From: a virus
Direction: 5' to 3' (one strand)
DNA length: 64,000 nt
IMG/VR virus record: IMGVR_UViG_3300032288_002811
Location: 1 to 64,000 of that record
In this document: positions 23,102 through 50,226 of the stretch, piece after piece
How the letters are laid out: each line of letters starts with the position of its first letter
Position numbering within the stretch: position 1 is the stretch's first letter
Notes under the pieces: model-generated
Told to the model about the DNA's origin: nothing
The model's database searches: none
Seen by the model: only the letters and a program-made list of their open reading frames with translations
Position numbers and translations under genes: made by a program

Positions 23102-26100
23102 TTATCCGTATGAGTTTAATTGGCCAAGAATTGTAAATGTACCGGAAACATTAATCAATGTAAATGTTATCACATCAACTCTATTTGCGACACCAACACC
23201 CGTTGTAGCATTTAACCATTTAATAGTAGGTGTTGAACCATTAACTGATATACTATTAACAATATATGGTGTTGCGCCTTGTGCAATTATACAAACAAAT
23301 GTTGATACACGACTTGAAGTATTATCTAAACCAGTAATTGTTGCGGTAATGTTACCACCAACGCCTGTATGATAAAATGTGGCACCTGTAGAGTAATCAT
23401 ATGTTGTTGCACCACTAGAACTTGATTTGGATTGAAAGTTTTCTTGTGATTGTTGGAAAACTGTGTTACTACTAAAGGTTACTAGACCAGATACTGTACC
23501 ACCAGCTTTTGGTAGTGCATTGTTAGCAGTTGTAAATGCAGAGTTGGCATATGAACCTGCACCTGTTGCATTTGTGCCAGCGGTATTAGCAATACCAAAC
23601 GCTGCGTTAGCATATGAACCAGCAGACAATGCATTAGTTGCAGCAGTATTGGCTTGTGTGAAAGCACCATTAGCGTAACCAGCTGCAGCAGTTACATTAT
23701 TAGCAGTTGAGAATGCGGCATTAGCATATGAACCAGCACTTGTTCCTTTGGCATCTGCTGTATTGGCTGCCGTGAAAGCACCGTTGGCATATGTACCAGC
23801 TGATACTGCCTTAGCATCAGCTGTGGAAGCATTAGTAGCTGCGGTATTTGATTGAGAGAAACTGGAATTGGCATATGATGCTGCAGAATTAGCTACGGCA
23901 AATCCAGAGTTGGCATATGAACTTGCTGAAGCAGATGAAGCAGCATTAGCTGCTGTGAATGCACCGTTAGCATACGATGCAGCTGAGTTAGCAACATAAC
24001 TTGGAGTATTGGCCGATAGGAAAGCAGAGTTAGCATATGAACTAGCAGCAGTTACGTTATTGGCTTGAGTGAATGCACCGTTGGCATACAACGCAGCTGA
24101 GTTGGCAACATTACTCGGAGTGTTAGCTGTTAAGAATGCTGAGTTGGCATATGAACTAGCAGCAGTTATGTTATTAGCAATACCAAATGCTGAGTTAGCA
24201 TATACACCAGCAGAATTGGCAGAAATGAAGGCACCATTTGCATATGAACTTGCTGAAGCAGATGACGCTGCATTAGCAGCTGTAAAAGCACCGTTAGCAT
24301 ATACACCAGCAGATGTTGCGGTATTGGCTTGTGTGAAGGCACCGTTAGCATACGATGCAGCTGAGTTGGCAGTATAACTTGGAGTATTAGCCTGTAAGAA
24401 GGCAGAGTTAGCATATGAACTTGCTGAAGCAGATGAAGCTGCATTAGCTGCTGCAAAGGCACCGTTAGCATACGATGCAGCTGAGTTGGCAGTATAACTT
24501 GGAGTATTAGCAGTTAAGAATGCTGAGTTGGCATATGAACTTGCTGAAGCAGATGAAGCTGCATTAGCTGCTGCAAAGGCACCGTTAGCATATGAACCTG
24601 CACCTACTGCTTTAGAGTCTGCCGTATTAGCTGCAATGAAAGCACCATTAGCATATATTGCAGCAGGAACAACACTCTCAAAAGCACTATTTGCAACATT
24701 AAAAGCGGATGTTGCATTCAAAGCAGCAGTATTGGCAACTGTAAATGCTGAATTGGCATATGATCCAGATGTTACTGCCTTAGCATCCGCTGTTGCAGCA
24801 TTAGTTGTTGCGGTATTGGCTTGTGTGAAGGCACCATTCGCATACACACCAGCAGACGTTGCAGTATTAGCTTGAGTGAAGGCACCGTTAGCATATATGG
24901 CTGCCGAGTTAGCAACATAACTTGGAGTATTGGCCGCTAGGAATGCAGAGTTGGCATAAACACCTGCCGAAGATGCACCACTTGCTGAGTTAGCAGCCGC
25001 AAAGGCCGCATTTGCATATGAACTAGAAGAATTAGCAACAGTAAAAGCACCGTTAGCATATACACCTGCCGAAGCTGCACCACTTGCTGAGTTAGCAGCC
25101 GCAAATGCCGAGTTGGCATAAGAACCAGCAGTTACTGCCTTAGCATCGGCCGTGTTAGCACCAGCGAATGCTGAGTTGGCATAAACACCTGCTGGTGTTG
25201 CTGTGTTAGCCTGTAAGAAGGCCGCATTTGCATATGAACCAGCAGAGTTTGCACCAGCATATGCATTGATTAAGTCACTAGACCATCCTGTATCATAGTT
25301 TGTTGAACTGTTCTTAACTAATACTTGACCTGTAGTACCACCAGAAGCAACACCATTACCAGTTGCGCCTGTGGTACCAGTTGCACCAGTTGGTCCACGT
25401 GGACCTTGGCCACCAGTTACTGTTTGTTCAAGTGCAAAATAATCTATCTTGGATGCATGTCCTGTATTACCAGCATTGCTGTGATATAAACGAGCTTGAA
25501 CTGCACCAGCAGAAATATAAGATGTATAACCTAATACTTCAAGTGCATATTGTGCATAACCATTGGCACCAGAATATGAACCAATATTGTCCCATGAAGA
25601 TGTGGAATTGTTATAAATTTGGAAATAAATTATATGACCAGATGCTGGTGTGTAATCAATATTTGCAACGATTCGGTTGAATGATGTTATACCACTAAAT
25701 GTAAATGTAATAATCCACGCAGGACCACTACCATTACCATCAGTTATTTGATATGAATTGCCATCATTCAATGTTTGTGTATCGGTTACAGAACCAGAAA
25801 CATAAACACCATTAGTTAATGACAAACTGTCCGCTGTATATGAAGTTGTTGCTGGAGCTTCAATATCTGCAAAACTCAATACACCCGTACCATCAGTAAT
25901 TAAATATTGACCTGGTGCACCACCATAAATGTGTAAGTTGTCAACTACACCAAGTGCAACATTGGCTCCAACAGAATTCACATTACCAGAAATCTTAAAT
26001 GCATTGTTTGATGTGAAGTATTCTAAGTTGCTTGTGTTACTTAAATAACCATTATTGTTGGCAAAAATTATAGTATTTGCTTTCCAGCCACTTACTTGTG

Positions 26101-27664
26101 TTGCGTTGTTTGATTGAGTAAAAGCTGCATTAGCATATGAACCCGCACTTGTTGCTTTAGTATCTGCTGTATTGGCTGCTGTAAATGCACCATTCGCATA
26201 AACACCAGCAGCAGTTGCCGTGTTGGCTTGTGTGAAAGCACCATTTGCATATGCAGCTGCAGAATTTGCCGTGTAACTTGGTGTATTGGCTGCTAAGAAT
26301 GCCGAGTTGGCATATGAACCAGATGCACCACCTGCTGTATTAGCAACAGCAAATGCTGAGTTTGCATACGAACCAGCAGTTACTGCTTTAGCATCTGCGG
26401 TATTGGCCACACCAAATGCCGTATTGGCATATGTGCCAGAATTTACTGCCTTGGTATCAGCAGTATTAGCAGCAGTAAAAGCGCCGTTGGCATAAGAACC
26501 TGCTGATACACTAGTATTAGCCGCACTAAATGCCGAATTGGCATATGAACCTGATGCTACTGATTTGGCATCGGCTGTATTGGCTGCCGTGAAAGCACCG
26601 TTGGCATAAGAAGCTGCTGAAGTGATATTGGTGTTTTGTGTTAAATCAATACCAACACCGTTATTAGCTGACAAGAATGCTGAGTTGGCATATGAACCTG
26701 CTGAATTGGCTGTACCAAAAGCACCATTAGCATATACACCTGAAGATGTTCCACTTAATGAGGCTGTATTGGCTGTTGCAAATGCACCGTTGGCATATAT
26801 CGCAGCTGAGTTAGCCACACCAAATGCCGTATTGGCATATGTGCCAGAATTTACTGCCTTAGTGTCAGCAGTATTAGCAGCAGTATAACCTGAATTGGCA
26901 TATGAACTGGCTGCTAATCCATTTGTATAAGCTGTGTTTGCTTGAGTATATGCGGAGTTGGCATAAGAACCTGCGGTGTTTCCTTTGTCATATGCATTTG
27001 CAATAACACCAGCAGTATCAACACCACCGATTGTTATCTTACTAGCAATTACATTTGCTTTGACCACATTTGCGGCCACATTTGCATACTTGAATGATGA
27101 GTCAGTAACAATAATATTATTATTTGGTAATACTTCAGGTGTATATTCTTCAAAGAACATCCATTCTTTGGTGCCTGCATCTCTAATAATACCTGTATGA
27201 GCATTTACACCATTATTATAATGTGCTGCAAAACCAATATCAATTACATCAGATGTATAATTACCAATACCCATAATAAACATCGAATCATTTACAACAA
27301 ATGAATTTGTATTGATGTTTGTAGTATTACCAAGAATGTTTAAGTTGCCGGTAACTGTTAGGTTTTGATTTACGTTTAAAGAACCTGTAATTGTACCACC
27401 AGTTAATGGTAATGCATTGTTAGCTGCATCAAACGCTGATTGACCGGTAGTATCACTTTTTTGTACTAGGTCACCATCAGCAGTTCCAGATTTCCACCAG
27501 TATTCAACAACTGGAGAAGAACCAATACCAACAGTCAAACCAAGATAACGATTTCCAACAGACACAGAACTCTTAGCAGTAGCTGTATCTGCATATGGAC
27601 CGTACCTAGAATCGGTCGATAAAGGTGCTTGTATACTTAGATTGTCGTTTAGGGTAATTGCCAT
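23102..27664 (-). CDS. Tail fibre protein, heptad stalk with collagen-like and beta modules (1,520 aa)
   Basis: Domains in order: N-terminal docking domain (1-75, ending SSPVVEYWWKSGTADGDLVQ); a beta module (about 88-215) with GSLNVNQNLTVTGNLNILGN and HTGIIRDAGTKEWMFFEEYT; a heptad stalk (about 225-520). A distinct beta module follows (about 525-750), with a jelly-roll-like stretch NDGNSYQITDGNGSGPAWII. Then come a short collagen-like run GPRGPTGATGTTGATG (about 757-772) and the fibre motif GQVLVKNSSTNYDTGWS. A long stalk (about 800-1385) leads to a C-terminal beta tip (about 1386-1520) opening GGTVSGLVTFSSNTVF. The protein is very rich in Ala, Asn, Ser and Thr and poor in charged residues. 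It is probably a trimeric fibre. Confidence 0.88.
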   Translation of the reverse strand: MAITLNDNLSIQAPLSTDSRYGPYADTATAKSSVSVGNRYLGLTVGIGSSPVVEYWWKSGTADGDLVQKSDTTGQSAFDAANNALPLTGGTITGSLNVNQNLTVTGNLNILGNTTNINTNSFVVNDSMFIMGIGNYTSDVIDIGFAAHYNNGVNAHTGIIRDAGTKEWMFFEEYTPEVLPNNNIIVTDSSFKYANVAANVVKANVIASKITIGGVDTAGVIANAYDKGNTAGSYANSAYTQANTAYTNGLAASSYANSGYTAANTADTKAVNSGTYANTAFGVANSAAIYANGAFATANTASLSGTSSGVYANGAFGTANSAGSYANSAFLSANNGVGIDLTQNTNITSAASYANGAFTAANTADAKSVASGSYANSAFSAANTSVSAGSYANGAFTAANTADTKAVNSGTYANTAFGVANTADAKAVTAGSYANSAFAVANTAGGASGSYANSAFLAANTPSYTANSAAAYANGAFTQANTATAAGVYANGAFTAANTADTKATSAGSYANAAFTQSNNATQVSGWKANTIIFANNNGYLSNTSNLEYFTSNNAFKISGNVNSVGANVALGVVDNLHIYGGAPGQYLITDGTGVLSFADIEAPATTSYTADSLSLTNGVYVSGSVTDTQTLNDGNSYQITDGNGSGPAWIITFTFSGITSFNRIVANIDYTPASGHIIYFQIYNNSTSSWDNIGSYSGANGYAQYALEVLGYTSYISAGAVQARLYHSNAGNTGHASKIDYFALEQTVTGGQGPRGPTGATGTTGATGNGVASGGTTGQVLVKNSSTNYDTGWSSDLINAYAGANSAGSYANAAFLQANTATPAGVYANSAFAGANTADAKAVTAGSYANSAFAAANSASGAASAGVYANGAFTVANSSSSYANAAFAAANSASGASSAGVYANSAFLAANTPSYVANSAAIYANGAFTQANTATSAGVYANGAFTQANTATTNAATADAKAVTSGSYANSAFTVANTAALNATSAFNVANSAFESVVPAAIYANGAFIAANTADSKAVGAGSYANGAFAAANAASSASASSYANSAFLTANTPSYTANSAASYANGAFAAANAASSASASSYANSAFLQANTPSYTANSAASYANGAFTQANTATSAGVYANGAFTAANAASSASASSYANGAFISANSAGVYANSAFGIANNITAASSYANSAFLTANTPSNVANSAALYANGAFTQANNVTAASSYANSAFLSANTPSYVANSAASYANGAFTAANAASSASASSYANSGFAVANSAASYANSSFSQSNTAATNASTADAKAVSAGTYANGAFTAANTADAKGTSAGSYANAAFSTANNVTAAAGYANGAFTQANTAATNALSAGSYANAAFGIANTAGTNATGAGSYANSAFTTANNALPKAGGTVSGLVTFSSNTVFQQSQENFQSKSSSSGATTYDYSTGATFYHTGVGGNITATITGLDNTSSRVSTFVCIIAQGATPYIVNSISVNGSTPTIKWLNATTGVGVANRVDVITFTLINVSGTFTILGQLNSYG
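23513..25260 (-). repeat. 21-bp (heptad) repeat stalk of the 1,520-aa fibre
   Basis: The stretch encodes heptads of the ANxAxxY / ANSAFxx type, such as SYANSAFLTANTPSYTANSAA. A second shorter stalk lies at about 26100-26960. Confidence 0.85.
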
Positions 27665-27667
27665 GTC

Positions 27668-29320
27668 TTAACTCAATGTTATTGAACCGCTAGTTGTTGT
27701 TGCGAAGCCTGATATGTATATCTTATATGATACTCCAGTCCAATATGAACTTGGTGAAGTAACGTTTTGTGTTACAGGTCCCAAAATGAATTGGCCTGAA
27801 CCGATACTACCATTATTTAGAGCAGTATTATACCAAGAAGTTTTGGTTGAATAACTAGCAGGTACTGCAAACCATACATATTGTCCACTAGCATTCCATG
27901 TGATTGATATTGAACCAGATGAATCGGAAACAACTTTGTTTGTTGTGCCTGCTTCAATTGCAGCTGCGATAGAAGAACCTGTTGGTTGCGATGAGGCCAC
28001 ACCCCAGAAGTATGGATAAATTCCAGTAGTAGATGTACTACCACCAGAGAAAGAATTTTGTGCAGCTTGTGGATTGGTAGTTAACAATACAGCAGCTGTA
28101 TTACTATCAGTACCACCTTTGTTATTTAATTTTGCTACACCAGCACTATAGTTTCCATCACCAGCCCAAGTTGTTGTACCATTAACAATCGTAAATGTAT
28201 CTGTATAAGAAGCTGTGTAAGAATAGTTTTGATTATTTGGATCTTCATAACCAAACTGAGAAGCAACATTAGATGTAGTAGAACTTGTTGGATTTGTACA
28301 TGCAGAAATTTGACTTCCATCACGTGTGAAACGTAATTGTGTAAACGGTCCTGCATCATTCTTAATACCAGTCAACGTCATTGATTGATTGACAGAAACA
28401 CCAATTTCATATGTACCAGAAACACTTGGTGAGAATGAAAGTGTTGGTACTGTGTAAGATGGTCCTAATGTTGGGAATAATATTGCGTCTAATGCTTGCA
28501 CGATTGTATATGTTTTCCATGTTGATGCTGGCGTAGGAGCTGCACCACCAACTTGAATGCTTGTAACTGAATTGGCAATTGATGTATTATATGATAATGC
28601 ATTATTGGCTTGCAAGAATGCTGCATTGGCTGTTTGTCTTGCAAAAGAATCTTGTGCAGTCGCCGCAGCTGAAGATGCTGAATTTGCCGCATCAAAAGCT
28701 AAGTTAGCAAAAGTGCTGGCAGAGTTAGCTGCTTGGAATGCACCATTAGCATAATTGGTCGCAGCGATTACATTATTTGCAATTGCAAAAGCAGCATTGG
28801 CATATGTGCCGGAGTTTATTGCTCTAACATCAGCAGTATTAGCAGCTGTAAATGCACCATTGGCATAACCGGATGCTGAATTTGCCGTGTAACTTGGCGT
28901 GTTGGCTTGTAAGAATGCTGAGTTAGCATAATCACCAGAAGAATTCGCAGCCGTAAATGCTGAATTGGCTTGTGTTCTAACCCATAAATCAGTAGAATTA
29001 TTTGCTTTATCGAATGCAGCATTAGCATACAATGCAGCCGAATTGGCGGTATAACTTGGTGTGTTGGCTTGTAAGAATGCTGAATTGGCATATGAACCAG
29101 CTGCGCTACCTGAAGCAATATTAGCAACTGCAAAAGCAGAATTGGCATATACACCTGCAGAATTTGCTGTTGTGAATGCTGAATTGGATTGTGTTCTGGC
29201 AAAACTATCAAGTATAGTATTTGCTACTACTTTCCAAGCGTTATTGGCCTCATTGTAAATGTATGTTTTTCCATTTACAATTGTTGTTTCGTTATCTGAA
29301 GGTGATGTTGGGAATGCCAT
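27668..29320 (-). CDS. Tail fibre protein, short heptad stalk with large tip (550 aa)
   Basis: Residues 1-45 are a compact attachment domain (GKTYIYNEANNAWKVV) often seen at the start of aquatic phage fibre proteins. The heptad stalk (about 45-250) contains the Arg/Trp motifs DSFARTQ, DLWVRTQ and DSFARQT. The C-terminal 300 residues form a beta-rich tip. It includes SFSPSVSGTYEIGVSVNQSM, a segment PYFWGVASSQPTG, and the ending WYNTALNNGSIGSGQF followed by WTGVSYKIYISGFATT. The tip is unlike the other fibres here, so it may bind a different receptor or cap a different stalk. No enzyme motif is seen. Confidence 0.86.
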   Translation of the reverse strand: MAFPTSPSDNETTIVNGKTYIYNEANNAWKVVANTILDSFARTQSNSAFTTANSAGVYANSAFAVANIASGSAAGSYANSAFLQANTPSYTANSAALYANAAFDKANNSTDLWVRTQANSAFTAANSSGDYANSAFLQANTPSYTANSASGYANGAFTAANTADVRAINSGTYANAAFAIANNVIAATNYANGAFQAANSASTFANLAFDAANSASSAAATAQDSFARQTANAAFLQANNALSYNTSIANSVTSIQVGGAAPTPASTWKTYTIVQALDAILFPTLGPSYTVPTLSFSPSVSGTYEIGVSVNQSMTLTGIKNDAGPFTQLRFTRDGSQISACTNPTSSTTSNVASQFGYEDPNNQNYSYTASYTDTFTIVNGTTTWAGDGNYSAGVAKLNNKGGTDSNTAAVLLTTNPQAAQNSFSGGSTSTTGIYPYFWGVASSQPTGSSIAAAIEAGTTNKVVSDSSGSISITWNASGQYVWFAVPASYSTKTSWYNTALNNGSIGSGQFILGPVTQNVTSPSSYWTGVSYKIYISGFATTTSGSITLS

Positions 29321-29336
29321 ATTGTTTTTTGCTTAT

Positions 29337-29352: not shown

Positions 29353-32300
29353 TCAATTATATTTCCAGCCTGAAGATGATATATCGATCCAAACATTTGA
29401 TAATCCATCGTATATATATTCGTACAAAATATCATCATTTGAAGACCACCATTGGTCACCTGCCTTAGCAGAACCTGGTGAATTAATTGAAACAGTATAT
29501 GTTATACCAGATGGTGTGTTGGCTTTTGCAAATGCGGAGTTAGCATATGAACCTGCTGAATTGGCAGCAATGAATGCGGAGTTTGCCTGAGTTCTAACCC
29601 ATGCATCAGATGCATTGTTAGCAGCTGCAAATGCTGAGTTGGCATATACACCAGCAGAGTTGGCAGTAGTAAACGATCCATTAGCATACAACGCAGCCGA
29701 ATTGGCAACATCACTTGGAGTATTAGCAGTTAAGAATGCTGAGTTGGCAGTAGTAAACGATCCATTAGCATACAACGCAGCCGAATTGGCAACATCACTT
29801 GGAGTATTTGCGCTTAAGAAGGCAGAGTTGGCATATACACTAGCAGAATTTGCAGTAGTAAATGCACCATTAGCATATACACCTGCTGATGTTGCACTGT
29901 TTGCAGTTGTAAATGCAGAGTTGGCATATACACCAGCAGAATTTGCAGAACTATAAGCAGAATTGGCATATACACCACTTGAGTTAGCAGCAATAAAGGA
30001 TGCGTTTGCATATGCACCAGCACTTTCGGCCTTATCATTTGCGGTGTTAGCAATACTAAATGCGGAGTTGGCATAATCACCAGCAGTTACTGCCTTTGGT
30101 TCACTATTAGCTTGTGTGAATGCACCATTTGCATATAAAGATGCAGAGTTAGCAACACCAAACGAAGAGTTGGCATAATCACCAGCAGTTACTGCTTTAG
30201 CATCAGCAACATTGGCAGCAGTGAAGGCACCGTTAGCGTATAGTGATGATGAATTAGCAACACCGAATGATGAGTTAGCATAGTTACCGGCTGTGACTGC
30301 TTTGGCATCAGCAACATTAGCTGCTGAGAAAGCACCGTTAGCATATAGTGATGCTGAATTAGCGACTTCAAAACCAGAATTTGCTTGTACAAAAGCACCA
30401 TTTGCATAAAAAGATGCTGAGTTAGCAACTTTTGATACTAAACCCATATCTAATGTATCACCATTAGGTGAAGTAATTGATAATGAGCCTGAACCGGTGT
30501 TACTTAATTTGATACCATCAACATTAATAGAACCTGGACCAACATACAAATCTCGCCAAACATAATCTGCATTACCTAACTGATAAGTATTTGTTACTGT
30601 TGGTAGGATATTTGCTGTCATCAGCAAGTCACCCGTCATTGTGTCACCAGATTTACTTAACTTTGTATTAGCTGTTGCAAATGCACCGTTAGCATATACC
30701 GCTGCTGAGTTGGCAGTATAGCTTGGTGTATTTGCTTGTAAGAAGGCAGCATTTGCGTACAGTGATGCAGAGTTAGCGACACCAAATGAACTATTAGCAT
30801 ATGAACCTGCTGTAACTGCCTTAGCATCAGCAACATTAGCTGCTGAGAAAGCACCGTTGGCATATAAAGATGCGGAGTTAGCGACACCAAATGAACTATT
30901 AGCATATGAACCAGCAGTTACTGCCTTGGCATCTGCTGTAGCAGCATTAATAGTCGCTGTATTTGCTTGGTCATATGCAGAGTTAGCATATACACCAGCA
31001 GTTACTGCTTTAGCATCTGCTGTATTGGCTGCCGTGAATGCACCGTTGGCATATAAAGATGCTGAATTGGCAACACCAAATGAACTATTAGCATACGAAC
31101 CTGCTGTAACTGCTTTAGAATCTGCCGTAGCAGCATTAGTGGTTGCTGTGTTTGCTTGGCCATATGCTGAATTGGCATAGACACCAGCTGTGACTGCTTT
31201 TGAATCTGCCGTAGCAGCATTAGTGGTTGCTGTGTTTGCTTGGCTATATGCAGAGTTAGCATATGAACCAGATGTTACTGCCTTGGCATCAGCGGTGTTG
31301 GAAGATATGAATGCTGAATTGGCATACGAAGCAGCAGAGGTTGCTCTATCAAGTGAAGAATTTGCGATAGAAAAAGCAGCATTCGCATAACTTCCAGCAT
31401 TTACTGCTTTAATATCAGCAGTATTAGCAGTTGCAAATGCACCATTGGCATAATCAGATGCTGAATTGGCCGTGTAACTTGGTGTATTTGCTTGTAAGAA
31501 AGCCGCATTGGCATAACTTCCAGCATTTACTGCATTGGTATCAGCAGTATTAGCAGTTGCAAATGCAGAGTTAGCATAAGAACCAGAAGTTACTGCCTTA
31601 GCATCAGCTGTTGCAGCATTAGTTGTTGCTGTATTCGCCTGAGTGAAACCTGAGTTGGCATAACTAGCAGCACTTGTTGATTTAGAATCTGCGGTATTGG
31701 CTGCACCAAAGGCTGCATTAGCATACGTGCCAGAATTTACTGCCTTGGTGTCTGCTGTATTGGCTGCATCAAATGCTGAGTTGGCATATTGAGAAGCACC
31801 AGCTGCATTGTTTGCTGCTGTGTTTGCTTGCGTGTATGCATTTCCAATATAAGAAGCTACATTGACCTGGCCAAGTGTAATATGGTCTGCTTCCAAATCA
31901 CCTTTAAATCTCCATGCTTGAACGTTTGCAAGATGAAAACTAGCATCAAGAAGATTAATTAGATTATTTGATTGAATTTCAGGTGTATAACCTTGGAAGA
32001 AAATCCATTCCTTTTCATTTGGATCTCTGAATATACCTGTGTGAGCACCAGAACTTGTATCAGTATCATAATAATGTCCAATAATACCAATGTCAACTGC
32101 ATCTGATGCATAATTACCATTTGCTAAGTATATTAAAGAATCACCTAATGTAATACTTTGTGTGCTAATTGTTGTTGTATTACCAAGAACTGTTAAATTA
32201 CCACTAATTGTTGCATCACCAGTAACACTTAAATTACCTGTAATTGTACCACCAGATGCAGATAATGCTGTATTGGCTGCATCAAAAGCTGCATTGGCAT

Positions 32301-33927: not shown

Positions 33928-33935
33928 TATTTATG
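33928..33935 (-). promoter_or_regulatory. Probable late promoter for the 1,515-aa fibre (CATAAATA)
   Basis: CATAAATA on the minus strand, one base from consensus, overlaps the stop codon of the giant fibre gene and lies 28 nt before the next ATG. Confidence 0.45.
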
Positions 33936-42900: not shown

Positions 42901-44763
42901 TGTTACTGCTTTGTCATCTGCCGTGTTGGCTGCCGTAAAAGCACCGTTGGCATACGAAGAACCAGAATTTGCAGTATAACTTGGTGTGTTGGCTTGTAAG
43001 AAAGCAGAGTTGGCATATGAACCTACTGTATTTGCTTTATCATATGCTGAGTTTGCATATTCACCAGCTGAATTTGCTTTACTGTATCCGGAGTTAGCAT
43101 ATACACCAGCAGAATTGGCTGCAACGAAAGCACCATTAGCATAAATGTCTGCTGAGTTTGCTGTGTAACTTGGAGTATTAGCCTGTAAGAAGGCCGCATT
43201 TGCATAGACACCAGAAGTATTTGCAGTATCGAAAGCTGAATTGGCATATCTGCCAGCAGCTTCACTTAACAATGCTGTATTAGCTATTGCAAAGGCAGCA
43301 TTAGCATATGAACTTGCTGAGTTTGCTGTGTAACTAGGAGTGTTTGCTTGTAAGAAGGCCGCATTTGCATATACAGATGCAGAATTTGCAACATCAAATC
43401 CTGAATTAGCATATGAACTTGCTGAATTGGATGTGGTAAATGCACCGTTAGCATAAACAGATGCTGAATTAGCAACACTAAATCCAGAGTTAGCATATGA
43501 ACCAGCAGTTACTGCTTTAGCATCAGCAACATTGGCAGCACCAAATGCACCATTAGCATATACAGAACCAGAATTTGCGGTATAACTAGGAGTATTGGCT
43601 TGTAAGAAGGCACCGTTTGCATATACATCAGCTGAGTTGGCAGTATAACTTGGTGTATTAGCTTGTAAGAACGCTACATTTGCGTGTCTATAAGCAGAGT
43701 TAGCATACACATCAGCTGAATTTGCGGTGTAACTTGGAGTATTAGCTTGTAAATATGCAGCGTTAGAATTTGTGAACGCATTGGTTACATAACCATATAC
43801 ATCAACACCATTGATAGTTACATAATTTGCAATTACATTTGATTTAATTGTGTTGGCATAAACGTTTGCATATTTAAAACTTGCATCAGTTATATCAATA
43901 TTATTTCCAGGTCCAACTTCTGGAGTGTAATTTTCAAAGAACATCCATTCTTTGCGGTCAGAATCTCTGATAATACCTGTATGAGCATTAACAGAATCTT
44001 TGTAATGTCCGATAAGACCAATGTCAACTACGTCAGAAGTGTAATTACCATTCGCTAAGTATATTAAAGGATCATTTAAAATGATACTAGTTGTATTGAT
44101 TGTGGTAGTGTTACCCAATACAAGTAGGTTACCAGTAATTGTTGTGTCACGTGTAACAAATAAATCTCTACCAACAGTTAAATCATTGGTGATTGTACCG
44201 CCTACTATAGGCAACGCAGCATTAGCAACTGCAAAAGCACCGTTTGCATATGATGCAGCTGAATTGGCAGTATAACTTGGTGTATTGGCTTGCAAGAATG
44301 CTGAGTTGGCATAAGAACCAGCTGCATTTGCTTTATCGAATGCTGAGTTGGCGTATACACTTGCTGAGTTAGCATCAACATAAGCCGAATTGGCATAAGA
44401 ACCAGCAGCATTTGCTTTTACATATGCAGAATTGGCATATACACCTGCTGAGTTTGCGGTAGTGAAAGCACCGTTGGCATATCTGCCAGCAGCTTCACTC
44501 AACATTGCTGTGTTAGCTACAGAGAAAGCAGAATTGGCATAATCACCAGCAGAATTCGCTGCAATGAATGCAGAATTTGCTTGTACAAATACTTGACCTT
44601 GTTGGTCTACATAAAATTGGCCACCAATAGTGTGTACACCATTAACAGTATCACCAATGAATAATTTTTGAGATGTATTTGAATAGGCCGCTTCACCAAC
44701 ATTAAGTGATGGTGGTACATCTGTTGCATTGGACCATTTTAATTGAATTACTGTATTTGCCAT
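33931..44763 (-). CDS. Giant modular tail fibre protein (3,610 aa)
   Basis: This is the largest gene in the window. N-terminal docking domain (1-50): IQLKWSNATDVPPSLNVGEA then a KLFIGD strand. Six beta modules break the stalk at about residues 183-324, 823-912, 1211-1347, 2101-2234, 2556-2623 and 3138-3234. Four of them open with a GG(T/S)-type turn followed by TGNL-like strands. Two (823-912, 2556-2623) share the block TTFPNLIQFADGTTQNTAFV. The module at 3138-3234 has AGIEIDRGVQPNSQLLWVE. About 2,800 residues are heptads, with TPS-containing and WVRTQ-containing interruptions. The C-terminus is a short Gly-rich segment and LDMGLIDDAVTIGFYVDCGE. Composition is extreme: Ala, Asn, Ser and Thr dominate and Cys is almost absent. 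Confidence 0.9.
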   Translation of the reverse strand: MANTVIQLKWSNATDVPPSLNVGEAAYSNTSQKLFIGDTVNGVHTIGGQFYVDQQGQVFVQANSAFIAANSAGDYANSAFSVANTAMLSEAAGRYANGAFTTANSAGVYANSAYVKANAAGSYANSAYVDANSASVYANSAFDKANAAGSYANSAFLQANTPSYTANSAASYANGAFAVANAALPIVGGTITNDLTVGRDLFVTRDTTITGNLLVLGNTTTINTTSIILNDPLIYLANGNYTSDVVDIGLIGHYKDSVNAHTGIIRDSDRKEWMFFENYTPEVGPGNNIDITDASFKYANVYANTIKSNVIANYVTINGVDVYGYVTNAFTNSNAAYLQANTPSYTANSADVYANSAYRHANVAFLQANTPSYTANSADVYANGAFLQANTPSYTANSGSVYANGAFGAANVADAKAVTAGSYANSGFSVANSASVYANGAFTTSNSASSYANSGFDVANSASVYANAAFLQANTPSYTANSASSYANAAFAIANTALLSEAAGRYANSAFDTANTSGVYANAAFLQANTPSYTANSADIYANGAFVAANSAGVYANSGYSKANSAGEYANSAYDKANTVGSYANSAFLQANTPSYTANSGSSYANGAFTAANTADDKAVTSGSYANAAFSFANTLSTGSATDGIARDAAASAAAYANSGFGAANVTASYANAAFLQANTPSYTANSASVYANGAFDAANTADTKAVNSGTYANAAFLQANTPSYTANSASVYANSAYDKANAAFLQANTPSYRANSASVYANGASIQANAAFLQANTPSYTANSAASYANGSFGAANSAAAYANSAFIYANSAFDKANAAATPSGYVPGSVLYANSTGYLTSVADFSYITSNSTLYVAGNVITGNIAGTVANTTLVTNGYITLFDVTGKTTFPNLIQFADGTTQNTAFVPGVATSAATYANGAFIQANAAFLKANTPDYVANSASAYANGAFLQANTPSYVANSAAVYANGAFTAANTADTKAINSGAYANSGFDAANSSSAYANSAFGAANTADVKAVTSGSYANSGFNVANSASVYANGAFTSSNIADAKAVTAGSYANSSFGIANSASSYANGAFLQANTPSYVANSAAVYANGAFIVANTVASASSYANSGFISANSASVYANAAFLQANTPSNVANSAALYANGAFVAANSSGEYANAAFAAANSAAGAASAAIYANGAFTAANTADAKAVTAGSYANSAFTTANNALPKSGGTVVGDVTITGSLVINGTTTTVNAETIITSDSLIKLAGNNTVSDSFDIGFYGVSKTTGSAGPTYHGLVRQAASNNFLLFQGLSQDPSGNVLAAGSADAANVATLIANVSGYSITSNGVDLYAYTTSAYTQANTATNNASGSSNYANSAFTTANSSSVYANSAYGKANVTGSYANSAFDASNIAYNTAVTVGTYANAAFLQANTPSDVANSASSYANGAFTAANTADTKAVNSGTYANGAFDSANSSGVYANSAFGAANTADTKAVTSGSYANSAFDSANSSGVYANSAFGAANTADTKAVTSGVYANASFIVANSASVYANGAFLQANTPSYTANSASVYANSAFDSANSSGVYANSAFAGANTADDKAVTSGTYANSAFVVANSAGVYANSSFAGANTADAKAVTSGVYANAAYDQANTATNNASGASLYANSAYASANATDAKTTTTGLYANSAFAGANTADAKAVTAGSYANAAFLQANTPSNVANSAALYANGAFVAANSSGVYANSGFNQANTSATNALSAGSYANSSFTTANIASDIASSASTYANASFIQANASFVVANTIASVSSYANSAFLSANTPSDVANSAALYANAAFVQANTPSDVANSASTYANGAFIQANAAFLQANTPSYTANSGSVYANGAFTAANTADTKATSAGSYANSAFLAANNATDPWVRTQANSAFTAANSSGVYANSAFAGANTADDKAVTAGSYANSAFGASNIAYNTTITVGTYANAAFLQANTPSDVANSSAIYANGAFAAANNATDPWVRTQANSAFVAANSSGVYANSAFAAANNATDPWVRTQANSAFVAANSSGVYANSAYDQANTATTNAATADAKAVTAGAYANGAFLQANTPSYTANSASSYANSAFTTANNALPKSGGSITGDLSVTGNLNILGNTTTISTQVIVANDSLIILGTGNYTADILDIGFASHYNDGTNAHAGLIRDAGTKEWQLFEGYTPEITANNNIDINDASFKIATLNANLHSTTILVKGIDLLPYVNNSYAAANTADAKATSAGSYANASFVVANTVASVSVYANGAFTAANSSGVYANSAYTASNTADAKAVTSGSYANSAFAGANTADTKATSAGSYANSAFLSANTPSDVANSAAIYANASFTTANTADAKAVTAGAYANAAYAAANSAAGASSAALYANGAFDAANSSGVYANSAFAGANTADDKATSASVYANSAYTSANASGVYANAAFLAANNATDPWVRTQANSAFVAANSSGVYANSAYTSANTADTKATSAGSYANAAFAVANSETKAVTAGTYANAAFLQANTPSYIANSAAVYANGAFTAANSSGVYANSAYVRANNSINANTGGTITGSLTVTGNVITDNVVGTLANTTITTNGYITLFDTTGKTTFPNLIQFADGTTQNTAFVPNAVTSAALYANGAFIQANAAFLQANTPSNVANSAALYANGAFAAANSETKAVTAGSYANSAFDKANTATTDAATADAKAVTAGAYANAAYAAANSASGATSAGVYANGAFTAANTADNKAVTSGSYANGAFDSANSSGVYANSAYTSANTADTKATSAGSYANGAFTAANTADAKAVTSGTYANAAFGAANTSDTKATSAGVYANGSFTAANSSGEYANTAFAGANTADAKAVTSGSYANSGFTTANAASSYANSAFTNANTADTKATSAGVYANSAFSSANTADSKAVTAGTYANSAFGASNIAYNTAVTVGDYANSAFITANSSGVYANASFSSANSAGVYANSAFLAANTPSYRANSSASYANGAFVQANAAFLAANTPSNVANSAALYANAAFLAANTPSDVANSAALYANSAFDSANVADAKAVTSGVYANAAFLQANTPSYTANSGATYANGAFTAANTADTKATSAGVYANSGFSKANTATTNAATADAKAVTAGSYANSAYALANNALNANTGGTVTGDVSITGNLVVTGTTTYTNTSVVLIADNIITLNAGVDQNGEPLVDAGIEIDRGVQPNSQLLWVETAGKWSASNGNTSFYIGSDSAESYANGAFTKANAAFLTANTPSNVANSASLYANGAFTQANNVIAASSYANSAFLQANTPSYTANSAAVYANGAFTKANASFIQANAAFLAANTPSNVANSAALYANSAFAQANNVIAAGEYANAAFLAANTPSYTANSADIYANGAFDTANSSGVYANSAYVVANTADVKATSAGSYANSAFLTANNATDPWVRTQANAAFLQANTPSYVANSAASYANAAFLVANTIVSASSYANSAYIKANTADSKATSAGSYANAAFAAANTGGTSTDSWARNQANAAFGVANSAYSLAGVADGNANSAASDAAFAITSACTAQEYATTSGSYANSAFEKANAAFFTANTASGGGTGGGFPYLDMGLIDDAVTIGFYVDCGELT
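34015..44600 (-). repeat. 21-bp/heptad repeat stalks of the giant fibre
   Basis: About eight-tenths of this range is heptad repeat, separated by the six beta modules at about 35060-35350, 36893-37095, 38060-38460, 40720-41130, 42025-42295 and 43790-44215. The commonest heptads are ANSSGVY, ANSAFxx, ANTADAK, AVTSGSY and ANSAAxY. Confidence 0.88.
40208..40395 (-). repeat. Two identical 83-bp segments spaced 105 bp apart
   Basis: Bases 40208-40290 recur at 40313-40395. The spacing is five heptads (5 x 21 bp). The protein shows two copies of an AFDSANSSGVYANSAFGAA-type block in the giant fibre. Confidence 0.9.
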
Positions 44764-44789
44764 ATTTTATTTGTTCTGGTGCATTCTTT

Positions 44790-44797: not shown

Positions 44798-44814
44798 TTA
44801 TTTGGTGGCAACTA

Positions 44815-45372
44815 TTAGAAAGTTCCACCATTAATTACATTTAAACCAATTTCACCAATATATCTGTAACCAGTAATAAAAACTACTTTACCAGTTAATG
44901 CTGATGGTATTGTACCACCAATAAAATTTAAAACTCCAGATTGATAATCAAAAAACCATTCACCTACACCCGCAATACCAGAATCAAACATCTGTGTGCC
45001 TGTTGCAACAGGATTCGATGCACCAGAACTGTCTGCATACACAGAGACAAAGTATGATGAACCAAATTCTGGTGTGATCCAATCAGTCAGGTTAGTCTTC
45101 CATGTTGGATACACTCCACCAACAGCCGTAGATGTACCATCCGCAACACATTGTATTCTATCTGTGCCTTGATATCCTTGTACAATACCAACTACAGATG
45201 ATGCTGTGGCAGGTATAAAACTGGCTTGAGTCCAAATTTTATCACCACGATTAATTGTTGGACTGGCAATAGTTTCATTACTTGCACTCTTATTTGTTGA
45301 TGTGTCTGTTTTAGTAACACCAAAAAGTTTTTTATAAAGTAAATCAACTTTTGAGGAATCTGATACTGCCAT
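44815..45372 (-). CDS. Virion structural protein of unknown function (185 aa)
   Basis: This small protein of a type common among aquatic T4-like fibre clusters has no assigned role that I know. It opens KVDLLYKKLFGVTKTDTSTN. The middle contains RGDKIWTQASFIPATA and TWKTNLTDWITPEFGSSYFV, and the C-terminal part EWFFDYQSGVLNFIGGTIPS. It is beta-rich with no heptads. Its last residues, NVINGGTF, nearly match the end of the 805-residue fibre (NLISGGTF). It touches the stop/start of its upstream neighbour, so it is co-translated with the fibres. A fibre connector, adaptor or baseplate-edge role is likely from context only. Confidence 0.8.
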   Translation of the reverse strand: MAVSDSSKVDLLYKKLFGVTKTDTSTNKSASNETIASPTINRGDKIWTQASFIPATASSVVGIVQGYQGTDRIQCVADGTSTAVGGVYPTWKTNLTDWITPEFGSSYFVSVYADSSGASNPVATGTQMFDSGIAGVGEWFFDYQSGVLNFIGGTIPSALTGKVVFITGYRYIGEIGLNVINGGTF

Positions 45373-47772
45373 TTAGTTACTCGCTGTCTGCAAAGATAAT
45401 GCGGTCACAGTTTGACCACTTGTTAATTTAATTCTAACATAAATTTCATTGGTCAATCCTGGATCCGAACTAGATACAGTACCAAATGTACAAGTTTTTC
45501 TGTGGTTAGTTACTGCTGAATTTAATGTGACTACACCACCCAATGCACAACCACTTGATGGTACACCTGCACCACTATATGCAGTTGCCATACTGACCCA
45601 ACCATTTGTTGCACCTGCAGATGTATCTATGGCACTACCTGGTACTGCAACCCAAAGGCCAGCAATCGTACCTGTAAATTGAATATCAAATTTAGATACA
45701 GATGTTCTTATAAATCTAAATGTAAAGTATTGTGCAGAACTTCTTCCTGAACTTAGGTCTGGACCTGCAGGTAAATAACCTGTAGAATAGTTTGTCTGGT
45801 CATGTTTTAATATCGCAGCAACCATTGTTGCGTCATATACTTGTAATGTTCCATTTTGGCTATCGAACAATGTTGCATTTGGGAATTGTACAGGATTGTC
45901 TGTAGAACCAGGATTAATAATTCTTGATGCCGTGCCGGAACCTGTACCAACAGTAGAACCAAAAGTAACAGCAGATTCTTCCATGGAATTGCCTGTTCCT
46001 GTTTTATAAAGAACTGTATTGGCCAATGCTGATGTGAATGCTTGTGTACCTGTTGCATAACTATTATCTACTGTAACACTTGGACCAGTTGATGATGAAC
46101 CAAAACCAGATATAATTGTAGATGTTGTATTTACAGTAACGGAGCCAGAGGACACATATAAATTTTGTACCAAAGGAAATGTTATACCAACAGTTGGATA
46201 TGTGTTACTAGAAGGTGCAGCAAATGCACCACCAGCAGTACCGGTAAAAAATGTATTGCTTGTTGGGAACATATCACCACTCAATTTAGATACGTTAACA
46301 CCCAATCTAAATGTAGATGAACTATTATAGTGTGGTACTGTACTTGAATATGTCAATGATGGAGATAGAGGTACAATACTTGCTGAAGTAAATGTTGGTG
46401 TACCTGGAGATGATGCATCATAATACCAAGATGCAGTAGAAGTTGTACCTGCACCAGAATGTGTAAGATAAACTTCATTCCATCCAGATGATACACTACC
46501 TGAACCTTGAACTGTAAATATTCTCCAAAAGCCTGCAGCACCACCAGAAACAGTAGAGTAATCTTTACTTTGTGAAATAACTAAATCACTATAACTACCG
46601 TTAGCACTTGATGTTGTGAAACTTACACTACCTGATATCGTACTATTTTTATAGAGTCTGAGTGTACCAGAATCGCCTGGTCCAAAGTTACTAAAAAGAT
46701 TTGTTGAGTATGAAGCCGTTCTGAGAACTGTACTAACAGTTGCACCACCAGAAACATTTCTGGCACTTGAAGTTCTGTCCGTTTGTATAAAATTTGTCAT
46801 ACGATATGTTGACAAACTATTAATACTTAAAGATGTTCCAGTAGGGAATGCTGGCGGCGATGCAGGTACTAGTTTACCTAACACATTGTTTAATAGTGCT
46901 ATACCATCTGTAATTTTTGTTGTTGTTGTAAGTGTCACCGCATTACTTACCAATTGACCAACTGTGTTTGAACCTAAATCAGCAGTAGCACCAGTAATTG
47001 TTGCTGAAACTCCACTAGCTAAATCATAAGCAGTATTTGCAACATCAAAAGCCGAATTGGCATAAACACTACCAGAATTAGCAGTATCAAATGCACCGTT
47101 AGCATAAATGTCTGCTGAGTTGGCAGTATAACTTGGAGTATTTGCTTGTAGAAAAGCATAAGCAGCTGATGTAAATGCAGAATTGGCTACACCAAATGCT
47201 GAGTTGGCATAACTAGATGCAGAGTTTGCTACATAATCTGGTGTATTGGCTTTTAAGAATGCAGCGTTTGCTTGTATAAATGCACCATTAGCATACAACG
47301 CAGCAGAGTTTGCTGTATAAATTGGTGTGTTGGCTTTTAAGAAAGCTGCATTAGCATAACTTGCAGCAGAATTGGATGTACTGAATGCTGTGTTGGCATA
47401 CAGACTGGCACCAGCCGCATTGTTTGTTGCTGTGTTTGCTTGGTCATAAGCAGAATTAGCATACACGCCAGCAGAATTGGCTGCAATAAAAGAAGAATTT
47501 GCTTGTAAATAAGATGCATTTGAATATGCATATGGTGCAGCAGCAGTAAACTGTTTTGTTCCATCAGCCAAGAATGTAACATTTGAGAATTCTCCATTGG
47601 CTGCAGCCTTGGATGCAACTAGACTTACTGCATTATTGGTGTCTAAGTAAAATAATTTACCATCAACAATATTAATAGCAACTTCACCGGCAACAAGCGA
47701 GCTCGCCAGAGGTAATGTACCTCCGGTATTAGAATAGAATAGTTGAATTGCTGTTGAATTGGCTTGTGCCAT
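45373..47772 (-). CDS. Tail fibre protein with large C-terminal domain (799 aa)
   Basis: N-terminal docking region (1-60): AIQLFYSNTGGTLPLASSLV, then GEVAINIVDGKLFYLDT, an MTD-like pattern. A short junction with TFLADGTKQFTAAAP leads to a heptad stalk (about 80-245). From about 250 to 799 there is a single large beta-rich C-terminal domain without heptads. It begins ITDGIALLNNVLGKLVPA and contains KDYSTVSGGAAGFWRIFTVQ and YFTFRFIRTSVSKFDIQFTG. This kind of domain ends several fibre proteins in aquatic phages and is probably a receptor-binding tip. Compared with its neighbours, the stalk is short and the tip is large. Confidence 0.87.
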   Translation of the reverse strand: MAQANSTAIQLFYSNTGGTLPLASSLVAGEVAINIVDGKLFYLDTNNAVSLVASKAAANGEFSNVTFLADGTKQFTAAAPYAYSNASYLQANSSFIAANSAGVYANSAYDQANTATNNAAGASLYANTAFSTSNSAASYANAAFLKANTPIYTANSAALYANGAFIQANAAFLKANTPDYVANSASSYANSAFGVANSAFTSAAYAFLQANTPSYTANSADIYANGAFDTANSGSVYANSAFDVANTAYDLASGVSATITGATADLGSNTVGQLVSNAVTLTTTTKITDGIALLNNVLGKLVPASPPAFPTGTSLSINSLSTYRMTNFIQTDRTSSARNVSGGATVSTVLRTASYSTNLFSNFGPGDSGTLRLYKNSTISGSVSFTTSSANGSYSDLVISQSKDYSTVSGGAAGFWRIFTVQGSGSVSSGWNEVYLTHSGAGTTSTASWYYDASSPGTPTFTSASIVPLSPSLTYSSTVPHYNSSSTFRLGVNVSKLSGDMFPTSNTFFTGTAGGAFAAPSSNTYPTVGITFPLVQNLYVSSGSVTVNTTSTIISGFGSSSTGPSVTVDNSYATGTQAFTSALANTVLYKTGTGNSMEESAVTFGSTVGTGSGTASRIINPGSTDNPVQFPNATLFDSQNGTLQVYDATMVAAILKHDQTNYSTGYLPAGPDLSSGRSSAQYFTFRFIRTSVSKFDIQFTGTIAGLWVAVPGSAIDTSAGATNGWVSMATAYSGAGVPSSGCALGGVVTLNSAVTNHRKTCTFGTVSSSDPGLTNEIYVRIKLTSGQTVTALSLQTASN

Positions 47773-47808
47773 TGTTACCTTACTCTTATATAATTGTTAT
47801 TTTATTAT

Positions 47809-50226
47809 TTAGAACGTGCCACCAGAAATCAGATTCGCTCGAAGTGTTCCACCCAATATTACATTACCCGATACACCAATACCACCAACTATAACCATTG
47901 TACCTGTATCTGTTGCCGTTGAATTAACATTTGAATTTGCAATTAATTGTCCAAAATTACCTACACTTGCACCACCTGAACCAGATACACTAAATGTTGC
48001 ACCCGTATCACTTGTTAATGATATTGCACCACCTTCAGCAGAAATCTCTGCACCACCCAAATCAATAGTGTTACCAGCAAGAAACAGTTTACGCCAACGT
48101 CTTGTTGGACTGCCTAAATCGTAACTGATATTTGCAGAAGGTAAGATATGACCGGCATATGTATTAGCCTGTATAATTACCTGACCTTGTAATGTTAAAG
48201 CACCACTAACTGTACCACCAGTTTTTGGTAAAGCAGCATCAGCAAGATTATAAGCAGAATTGGCTTGAAGAAATGATGAGTTGGCGTATGATGCAGATGA
48301 GTTTGCTGTATAACTTGGTGTGTTAGCTTGAATGAAAGCTGCATTGGCTGTACTGAATGAAGCATTTGCTTGTCTGAATGCACCATTAGCATAATTTGAT
48401 GCCGAATTGGCCGAAACAAAAGCCCCGTTGGCATATGTTCCACCAGAAACTCCAGTGGATGAGGCTGCATTGGCTGCGTCAAATGCTGTGTTGGCTTGTG
48501 TTCGAACCCATGTATCTACAGCACTATTAGCAGCTGCAAAGGCCGCATTGGCGTATATGCCAGAAGAATTGGCTGCAACAAAAGCACCGTTAGCATATAA
48601 TGCTGCTGAGTTGGCAACATTACTTGGTGTATTGGCTTGTAGGAAAGCCGCATTTGCTTGTACAAAAGCACCGTTAGCATAAACACTAGCTGCTGTAGTA
48701 TTATTTGCTGCAATGAATGCCGCATTTGCTTGTACAAAAGCACCATTCGCATACAACGCAGCTGAGTTAGCAACATTACTTGGTGTGTTAGCAGTTAAGA
48801 AAGCACCGTTGGCGTATACACCAGCGGATGCAGCTGTATTAGCAACAACAAACGCAGCATTAGCATATGAACTTACTGAATTTGATGTAGTAAATGCACC
48901 ATTAGCATATAATGCAGCCGAGTTAGCAACATTACTTGGAGTATTTGCTTGTAGGAAAGCGGCATTCGCTTGTACGAAAGCACCGTTAGCATATAATGCA
49001 GCTGAGTTGGCAACATTGCTTGGTGTATTGGCTTGCAAGAAGGCCGCATTAGCATATACACCAGATGAATTAGCTGCATCAAATGCTGAATTTGAATTTA
49101 AGAAAGCCGCATTAGCATAAACACCAGAAGAATTAGCAGCAACAAATGCAGAATTTGCTTTTATAAAAGCAAGATTGGCTGTATTAAAAGAGGATGTTAT
49201 GTGTGAATATGCATTTATTCCATTTATAGTTGCATATTCAGCAATTAAATTACCTTTAAATACATTTGAATAAACGTTGGCATATGAAAATGATGGATGA
49301 GCAAGGTCAATTAAGTTATTACCTTCAACTTCAGGTGTATATCCTTGAAAGAAAATCCATTCTTTTCTGTTTGGATCTCTAAAAATACCTGTGTGAGCAT
49401 TAGATCCAGAATTATAATTACCAATAATACCAATGTCAACTGCATCACTGCTGTAATTATTACTACCCAAATATATTAAAGTATCGGTTACTGTAACGCT
49501 TTGTGTACTAATTGTTGTACTATTACCAAAAACAATCAAGTTACCAGAAACTGTAAGGTCATTTGTTACATTTAATGAACCTGAAACTGTACCACCAGTA
49601 GCTAATGATGTAGTATTTGCTTTATCAAACGCACCTTGTGCAAGGTTTGTTGCAGATGTAATATTGGTATTTTGTGTTGTATTAACACCTTGTAACAATA
49701 TAATATTATTTGATGCGGTATTGGCTGTGTCAAACGCAGCGTTTGCTTGTGCAAAAGCAAAAACAGCCAAACCTGCACCGTTGGCAGTATTGTATGCAGC
49801 TTGTGCTAATGCTGATGCTGAATTGGCCGCACCAAATGCAGAGTTGGCATATATGCCTACTGTTACAGAATTATTTGCATTCGTATTTGCTTGTAAGAAA
49901 GCTGCATTAGCTTTAGTAAATGCACCATTTGCTTGGTTGAAAGCAGCATTTGCGCCTGCCCATGCAAGACTTAAATTACCTGTAGAACCCGCTGAATTAG
50001 CAGTATTGAATGCAGCCTGTGCTAATGTAGTAGCAGTATTGGCCTGTGTATATGCATTTATACCAGTTGCCACCGCTGTGGCACCACCAATGGTAATTAC
50101 ATTACCATATTGATTACCAATATAAAATGTATTTGCTAAAAATGAGTAAGCTAATGCGCCATCTTGTAAAAAAGTCGGTGCAGTATTAGCATACGACCTT
50201 AATATCTGTACACTTGTATTTGACAT
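47809..50226 (-). CDS. Tail fibre protein, heptad stalk (805 aa)
   Basis: Residues 1-50 form the docking domain (TFLQDGALAYSFLANTFYIG). A first stalk is of a looser type rich in AQAAFNTAN, followed by a beta module (about 208-342) with GSLNVTNDLTVSGNLIVFGN and HTGIFRDPNRKEWIFFQGYT. A second heptad stalk (about 350-655) contains DTWVRTQ. The C-terminal 145 residues form a beta tip: GALTLQGQVIIQANTYAGHI, YDLGSPTRRWRKLFLAGNTI and GTMVIVGGIGVSGNVILGGT. It is the first of the long heptad fibres in transcription order. Its start codon overlaps the stop of the 72-residue protein by one base. Confidence 0.88.
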   Translation of the reverse strand: MSNTSVQILRSYANTAPTFLQDGALAYSFLANTFYIGNQYGNVITIGGATAVATGINAYTQANTATTLAQAAFNTANSAGSTGNLSLAWAGANAAFNQANGAFTKANAAFLQANTNANNSVTVGIYANSAFGAANSASALAQAAYNTANGAGLAVFAFAQANAAFDTANTASNNIILLQGVNTTQNTNITSATNLAQGAFDKANTTSLATGGTVSGSLNVTNDLTVSGNLIVFGNSTTISTQSVTVTDTLIYLGSNNYSSDAVDIGIIGNYNSGSNAHTGIFRDPNRKEWIFFQGYTPEVEGNNLIDLAHPSFSYANVYSNVFKGNLIAEYATINGINAYSHITSSFNTANLAFIKANSAFVAANSSGVYANAAFLNSNSAFDAANSSGVYANAAFLQANTPSNVANSAALYANGAFVQANAAFLQANTPSNVANSAALYANGAFTTSNSVSSYANAAFVVANTAASAGVYANGAFLTANTPSNVANSAALYANGAFVQANAAFIAANNTTAASVYANGAFVQANAAFLQANTPSNVANSAALYANGAFVAANSSGIYANAAFAAANSAVDTWVRTQANTAFDAANAASSTGVSGGTYANGAFVSANSASNYANGAFRQANASFSTANAAFIQANTPSYTANSSASYANSSFLQANSAYNLADAALPKTGGTVSGALTLQGQVIIQANTYAGHILPSANISYDLGSPTRRWRKLFLAGNTIDLGGAEISAEGGAISLTSDTGATFSVSGSGGASVGNFGQLIANSNVNSTATDTGTMVIVGGIGVSGNVILGGTLRANLISGGTF

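What the first reader, a model, noticed from the sequence alone, without database searches (positions are those of the whole stretch)
23102..50226. Family of giant fibres built from one Ala-Asn heptad repeat
Six genes here (805, 799, 3,610, 1,515, 550, 1,520 aa), plus one near gp8, share a seven-residue unit of the kind ANxAxxY/ANSAFxx. Blocks such as ANTADAK-AVTSGSY-ANSAFxx are exact three-heptad periods. A small core residue (Ala) recurs at positions 1 and 4, Tyr at 7 and Phe at 5. This suggests an alanine-packed trimeric coiled coil, but the frequent Gly and Pro also allow another helical or solenoid fold. The whole fibre array takes close to half of the window, which is unusual for a T4-like phage.
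Basis: partly seen in the sequence, partly recalled or inferred. Interest (0 to 1): 0.78.

Follow-up and report, generated by a model that had tools for sequence, protein, structure and literature searches.

The report
Giant alanine-zipper phage tail fibres
An uncultured T4-like phage devotes two fifths of this stretch to six tail-fibre genes whose stalks are built from one seven-residue alanine-asparagine repeat; the repeat very probably forms a long helical rope, and near-identical relatives carry the rope in different lengths.

Summary
Six genes (1520, 550, 1515, 3610, 799 and 805 aa; 23102-50226, minus strand; 42% of the window) carry a strict heptad: Ala 96%, Asn 84% and Ala 73% at three fixed positions over 5,306 phased residues. 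The extra copy near gp8 is a single two-heptad scrap. The window is from a Kyanoviridae-like phage, with gp8, a VrlC-like protein, the fibres and gp13-15 in the usual order. Best reading: tail fibres with Ala-a/Ala-d coiled-coil stalks, probably homotrimeric, broken by small beta 'beads', some ending in adhesin-type domains. Support: Pfam Alanine_zipper matches (22/28 stalk pieces; 0/10 shuffles), AlphaFold helices (low confidence), an Mtd-type N-terminal domain, and a C-terminal fold shared with phage fibres. At least 442 IMG/VR stretches are related; no bacterial genome among 84,980 species was. Near-identical phages differ by whole stalk units (14, 40, 56, 105 aa), so stalk length apparently changes by in-frame recombination. 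This is a new variant of a known kind (Ala-rich phage fibre stalks), unusual in consensus, scale and length polymorphism. Trimer state, presence in virions and the role of length are not shown.

The parts
47809..50226 (-). 805-aa repeat fibre; N-terminal domain of the MANTxIQLxxS type, stalk, one bead, ends ...SGGTF
   Evidence: 39 ANxA vs 4.9 by shuffle; PHROG tail fiber hits
49192..49599 (-). type A bead (GGTVSGSLNV...HTGIFRDPNRKEW) in the 805-aa fibre
45373..47772 (-). 799-aa repeat fibre: N-terminal domain, about 160-aa phased stalk, about 530-aa C-terminal part (phrog_8578)
44815..45372 (-). 185-aa protein without the repeat, lying between fibre genes (phrog_9417, unknown function), ends ...NGGTF
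33931..44763 (-). 3,610-aa repeat fibre, 235 ANxA; about 3,150 residues near repeat motifs; several beads
43789..44205 (-). type A bead 1 of the 3,610-aa fibre
40729..41115 (-). bead 2 of the 3,610-aa fibre
38059..38439 (-). type A bead 3 of the 3,610-aa fibre
35074..35337 (-). type B bead (GGTVTGDVSITGNLVVTG...WVETAGKW) of the 3,610-aa fibre
29353..33900 (-). 1,515-aa repeat fibre, 93 ANxA; longest uninterrupted phased run 371 aa
33742..33900 (-). Mtd_N domain at the N-terminus of the 1,515-aa fibre
   Evidence: Pfam PF18454 E=1.8e-10; profile to PDB 1yu0 E=5e-20
31831..32256 (-). type A bead of the 1,515-aa fibre (modelled)
27668..29320 (-). 550-aa repeat fibre: short N-terminus, about 245 aa of repeat, about 290-aa C-terminal part
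   Evidence: 19 ANxA vs 1.5
23102..27664 (-). 1,520-aa repeat fibre, 82 ANxA
26990..27403 (-). type A bead of the 1,520-aa fibre
25352..25414 (-). short collagen-like Gly-X-Y stretch (GGQGPRGPTGATGTTGATGNG) in the 1,520-aa fibre
   Evidence: sequence
24476..24595 (-). 120-bp (40-aa) stalk unit absent from the near-identical contig L004
23105..23467 (-). C-terminal beta domain (FYHT...ATITGL...QGATPY...TIKWLN) of the 1,520-aa fibre
50920..53700 (-). 926-aa tail fibre with C-terminal S74 chaperone; only one two-heptad scrap of the repeat
50833..50840 (-). T4-type late promoter octamer TATAAATA ahead of two small ORFs and the 805-aa gene
   Evidence: octamer count in the window is not above chance

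Best explanation
The six genes encode tail (baseplate-attached) fibres of a T4-like phage. Most chains start with a small N-terminal domain, then run as a long parallel, probably three-stranded coiled coil. Its core positions a and d are both Ala (an alanine zipper), with Asn fixed at b and aromatic residues at e and g in every second or third heptad. Register-shifting linkers and beta-rich beads interrupt the stalk, and several chains end in a large C-terminal domain of adhesin type. The stalk is a spacer that carries receptor-binding tips away from the particle. Because it is made of many diverged but still recombinable units, in-frame recombination changes its length while keeping the fold, so reach can change without altering the tips. 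Shown: the repeat, phasing, domain layout, gene neighbourhood, wide occurrence and length variants between assembled relatives. Inferred: trimer state, presence on virions, attachment end, and that length affects adsorption.
For: Heptad far above chance with fixed Ala/Asn/Ala. Across 158 family proteins 7,922 of 8,974 spacings between AN anchors are multiples of 7. Ala spectral power peaks at 3.5 residues. Pfam Alanine_zipper matches 22/28 stalk segments (best 1.8e-5), 0/10 shuffles. AlphaFold2: residues 2-77 and 213-300 (stalk) helical, bead beta. Mtd_N at the start of the 1515-aa chain, E=5e-20 to solved Mtd; PMC4786415 lists the end of this domain in 1YU4 as a beta-to-coiled-coil junction. 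The C-terminal domain of the 1520-aa chain is a beta fold (pLDDT about 80) whose best BFVD match is a Synechococcus phage tail fiber, E=2e-7. PHROG tail-fibre matches. Position between gp8/VrlC-like and gp13-15 on one strand with short gaps, as in HTVC008M, Mosig and vB_OspM_OC. Near-identical phages differ by one whole stalk block: 40, 105, 56 and 14 aa; including pairs of 93-97% identity, 16 of 21 long indels are multiples of 7. SNPs between window and L004: 16 synonymous, 5 non-synonymous, P about 1e-6 to 1e-4 against random.
Against: AlphaFold confidence in the stalk is low (mostly pLDDT 35-75) and only monomers could be run. Pro sits at core position d in 7% of heptads and Gly is common, which is odd for a continuous helix. 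No solved structure matches the stalk, bead or C-terminal alignments by sequence. No virion proteomics or microscopy is at hand for this phage. The 3,610-aa ORF rests on one metagenome assembly, although no exact repeat in the array reaches 100 bp.
Confidence: 0.78

Rival explanations
1. The repeat forms a beta-solenoid or another non-coiled-coil fibre, with Asn ladders and stacked aromatics.
For: Fixed Asn (84%), Tyr/Phe every 14-28 residues, Gly and Pro in the unit; the seven-residue unit alone does not prove a coiled coil.
Against: Small residue at alternating 3/4 spacing, Ala-zipper profile matches, helical models, register breaks of kinds known in coiled coils (PMC4786415).
Confidence: 0.08
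2. The stalks are helical but two-stranded, or fold back as antiparallel helices (Alacoil-like) between beads, so the fibres are far shorter than the linear estimate.
For: Ala at a and d is also compatible with tight antiparallel helix pairs; beads and the D-x-W/Y-V/A-R-x-x-AN linkers could be turns.
Against: Solved phage fibres are as a rule parallel trimers (own knowledge; T4 gp34 in PMC5537660); the 1515-aa chain begins with the N-terminal domain of trimeric Mtd; a Gly-X-Y stretch in the 1520-aa chain favours three chains.
Confidence: 0.12
3. The repeats are disordered, low-complexity linkers that drift freely, not a structural stalk.
For: Low pLDDT; many Ser, Thr, Gly and Asn.
Against: Strict phasing over thousands of residues and many viruses; the 136 21-residue units of the 3,610-aa gene are all different as DNA while keeping the pattern, and SNPs are mostly synonymous.
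Confidence: 0.05
4. The unit-length variants are assembly collapse of repeats rather than real differences between phages. (This concerns the length variants only, not the fibre reading.)
For: All come from metagenome assemblies; the 40-aa variant lies at a 62-bp exact repeat.
Against: No exact repeat in the window's array reaches 100 bp; several forms recur in separate assemblies (three long-form contigs L007, L009, L010 against L006; four against L036).
Confidence: 0.2

Closest known systems
Ala-rich heptad stalks of phage tail fibres (here Roseobacter phage SIO1 gp7; by own knowledge also phage lambda Stf)
   Same: Seven-residue, Ala-dominated repeat between an N-terminal part and a C-terminal part in a tail fibre
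   Different: SIO1 repeats SATNAAT-like units, without the fixed Asn at b and the aromatics at e/g; one fibre of 540 aa rather than six of up to 3,610 aa; the Pfam fibre repeat PF03406 is not found here
Alanine-zipper coiled coil of outer-membrane lipoproteins (Pfam PF11839)
   Same: Ala at both core positions; profile matches 22 of 28 stalk pieces
   Different: Weak scores; short cellular lipoproteins without the Asn/aromatic pattern; likely convergence, not descent
Bordetella phage Mtd (major tropism determinant)
   Same: N-terminal Mtd_N domain of the 1515-aa fibre
   Different: No reverse transcriptase in the 77-kb record; the confident match is confined to the N-terminal domain
T4 long tail fibre (gp34-gp37)
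   Same: Long trimeric fibre with helical necks, beta parts and a hinge (PMC5537660); T4-like gene neighbourhood
   Different: T4 gp34 is 1,289 aa and mostly beta in its solved part; the whole T4 fibre is about 145 nm; here the shafts look mainly helical and could be much longer
Tail-fibre gene of Enterococcus phage EfV12-phi1
   Same: In-frame copy-number change inside a fibre gene, seen when the host became resistant (PMC6365445)
   Different: There a 1.8-kb block in the laboratory; here 42-315 bp stalk units between assembled natural phages

Membership tests
Phage tail fibre | Sequence relation to annotated tail-fibre families | tested here: met
   PHROG tail-fibre families match four of the five repeat proteins scanned; the 550-aa one has none and the 3,610-aa one was not scanned; the C-terminal fold of the 1520-aa one matches phage fibres
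Phage tail fibre | Located in the structural module of a tailed phage | tested here: met
   Between gp8/VrlC-like and gp13-15 genes, one strand
Phage tail fibre | Present on the virion | not testable with these tools
   Uncultured phage
Trimeric alanine-zipper coiled coil | Heptad with Ala at a and d | tested here: met
   96% and 73% Ala; period 3.5
Trimeric alanine-zipper coiled coil | Helical fold | tested here: inconclusive
   Helix in the AlphaFold model, low confidence
Trimeric alanine-zipper coiled coil | Three parallel chains | not testable with these tools
   No multimer prediction available
Phage_fiber_2 repeat (PF03406) | Match to the Pfam model | tested here: not met
   No match in the record; the control hit E. 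coli
Mtd / diversity-generating retroelement system | Mtd_N domain | tested here: met
   1515-aa protein; a weak match for the 3,610-aa protein (E=0.002, below cut-off)
Mtd / diversity-generating retroelement system | Reverse transcriptase nearby | tested here: inconclusive
   None in the 77-kb record, which is a fragment

The most novel reading that the evidence does not exclude
A widespread class of aquatic T4-like phages uses a length-tunable alanine-zipper shaft: hundreds of diverged heptad units let fibres of up to a few hundred nanometres gain or lose reach by in-frame recombination, as a counter to changing host capsules or surface layers.
Probability: 0.3. Interest if true: 0.72.

Novelty: new variant of a known kind. 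Interest (0 to 1): 0.52.

Why it matters
It identifies a common but apparently unnamed fibre architecture in uncultured T4-like phages that current libraries file as separate 'tail fiber' or unknown families. It gives a simple, testable rule (Ala-Asn-x-Ala heptad) for finding host-recognition genes in metagenomes. The length variants make testable the question whether phages tune fibre reach independently of tip specificity. A long all-alanine core with fixed Asn and periodic aromatics would also be a useful natural model for coiled-coil design.

Tried and rejected
tblastn of the whole 1515-aa protein against annotated phages found mainly its Mtd_N end, probably because the low-complexity filter hides the repeat. 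tblastn with the bead gave no hit. Profiles of stalk, bead and C-terminus found nothing in PDB sequences. Foldseek of the bead model gave only noise, and of the C-terminal model nothing significant in PDB. A diversity-generating retroelement was considered because of Mtd_N; no reverse transcriptase was found. The PF03406 fibre-repeat model was rejected. A profile comparison of the Mtd_N and MANTxIQL N-termini was suggestive only (E=0.0009, probability 24%). A scan of 84,980 bacterial and archaeal species genomes found no relative. The bead alignment was too variable for a collection scan. The SIO1 stalk matched only RNA polymerase II low-complexity tails in PDB, treated as composition noise. 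Literature searches found no paper describing this repeat, but only open-licence papers are held.
Full report
OBSERVATION. The six ORFs are present at the stated sizes on the minus strand. The motif ANxA occurs about 8 to 13 times more often than in shuffled versions of the same proteins and beyond every shuffle; self-similarity peaks at lags such as 7, 14, 21 and 28. In phased runs (5,306 residues) the consensus is [Y/K/Q/A]-A-N-[S/T]-A-[F/G/S/D]-x: Ala 96% at one core position, Asn 84% next to it, Ala 73% at the second core position (Ser 13%, Pro 7%). Tyr and Phe appear together in every second or third heptad (YANSAFx), giving the 14-, 21- and 28-residue super-periods.

CONTEXT. The window is 64 kb of a 77-kb IMG/VR virus record. 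Genes for Gp23, scaffold, portal, sheath and terminase, for neck and sheath-stabiliser proteins (gp13-15 region) and for gp8 mark a T4-like phage. The large protein next to gp8 is most like VrlC-type virion proteins of Kyanoviridae such as Pelagibacter phage Mosig and the protein at the same place in Ochrobactrum phage vB_OspM_OC. In those phages and in HTVC008M the interval between the VrlC-like protein and gp13 holds other genes, fibre genes among them, but the regions examined do not carry the Ala-Asn repeat. Glycosyltransferase- and methyltransferase-like genes, an RCC1-repeat protein and lectin- or cadherin-like proteins lie next to the fibres.

ARCHITECTURE. Stalks are interrupted by bead inserts that begin GGT[IV][TS]G and contain a conserved D-[IL]-G-[FIL]...H-[TA]-G-[IL]-x-[RK]-D core (type A) or a ...NAGIxVxRGDxxxxxxRWNE... 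core (type B). The 1515-aa chain begins with an Mtd_N domain (Pfam 1.8e-10; 5e-20 to solved Mtd). The 3610-, 805- and 799-aa chains share another short N-terminal domain that may be a distant relative of it. The 1520-aa chain has a collagen-like Gly-X-Y stretch and a C-terminal beta domain found in relatives with the same stalk and matched in structure by tail fibres of other phages. A recurrent linker D-x-[W/Y/L/F]-[V/A/S]-R-x-x-AN appears 375 times in 102 of 158 family proteins; in the window it sits in 12-residue spacings, that is, at a register break.

FOLD. Four lines favour a coiled coil: Ala power peaks at period 3.5; Alanine_zipper matches disappear on shuffling; the AlphaFold2 model has continuous helices on both sides of the bead (low confidence); and register breaks of +3, +5 and +6 residues recur, kinds that PMC4786415 discusses as coiled-coil discontinuities. 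The end of Mtd_N is itself listed there as a beta-to-coiled-coil junction. Trimer state is inferred. If every repeat-covered residue were in one straight coiled coil, the 3,610-aa chain would span about 470 nm; this is an upper bound, because beads, breaks and Pro may kink or fold it. The whole T4 fibre is about 145 nm (PMC5537660).

DISTRIBUTION AND EVOLUTION. No bacterial or archaeal genome matched. In 158 distinct family proteins 88% of 8,974 AN-to-AN spacings are multiples of 7. All 136 21-residue units of the 3,610-aa gene differ as DNA, and identical peptides use different codons, so the array looks old and held by selection rather than freshly slipped. Yet near-identical phages differ by whole units: 40 aa between the window and L004 (99.9% protein identity), 105 aa between L006 and three long-form contigs, 56 aa between L036 and four contigs, 14 aa between L117 and L118/L119. 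Counting also pairs at 93-97% identity, where gap placement is less certain, 16 of 21 indels of 10 aa or more are multiples of 7 (events were de-duplicated by hand). Homologous recombination between repeats explains this without invoking selection on length. SNPs between window and L004 are 16 synonymous to 5 non-synonymous.

MECHANISM AND LIMITS. The stalk most likely holds adhesin tips away from the baseplate, and length change alters reach. A laboratory precedent is EfV12-phi1, in which in-frame duplications inside a tail fibre gene arose when the host became resistant (PMC6365445). For the present phage, virion presence, oligomer state, host and effect of length are all untested.

VERDICT. 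A real and large feature, correctly spotted. It is a new variant of a known kind: Ala-rich phage fibre stalks are known (SIO1 gp7), but this consensus, its scale, its multi-gene use and its length polymorphism were not found described in the papers searched.

Noticed in passing
21242-23098: 618-aa protein with RCC1 (beta-propeller) repeats directly downstream of the fibre array; PHROG has other phage RCC1 proteins.
   Followed up: partly
17319-21217: Three sugar- or methyl-transfer genes (GT25 family; a 585-aa two-part protein; a 468-aa protein with methyltransferase domain) sit between the fibres and gp13; they might modify the fibres or the host surface.
   Followed up: no
10950-14636: 1,228-aa protein with eight cadherin-like beta-sandwich domains beside a laminin-G/lectin-like protein (10221-10949).
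   Followed up: no
2645, 4050, 21224, 50833: All four TATAAATA octamers of the window lie on the coding (minus) strand, near gene starts, as T4-type late promoters do, although the total is below the chance expectation of 7.8.
   Followed up: partly
44815-45372, 47809, and loci L012, L017: Several fibre-module proteins end in the same short tail, [S/N]GGTF, a possible joint between fibre parts.
   Followed up: no
C-terminus of 33931-44763; L017 11734-13917: The 3,610-aa fibre ends without a recognisable globular domain, in ...YLDMGLIDDAVTIGFYVDCGELT, similar to the tail of an L017 fibre (DLGYVADTVSVSFDAGYVED...).
   Followed up: no
50226-50799: Two small ORFs (about 116 and 72 aa) lie between the 926-aa and 805-aa genes just after a late-promoter octamer.
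   Followed up: no
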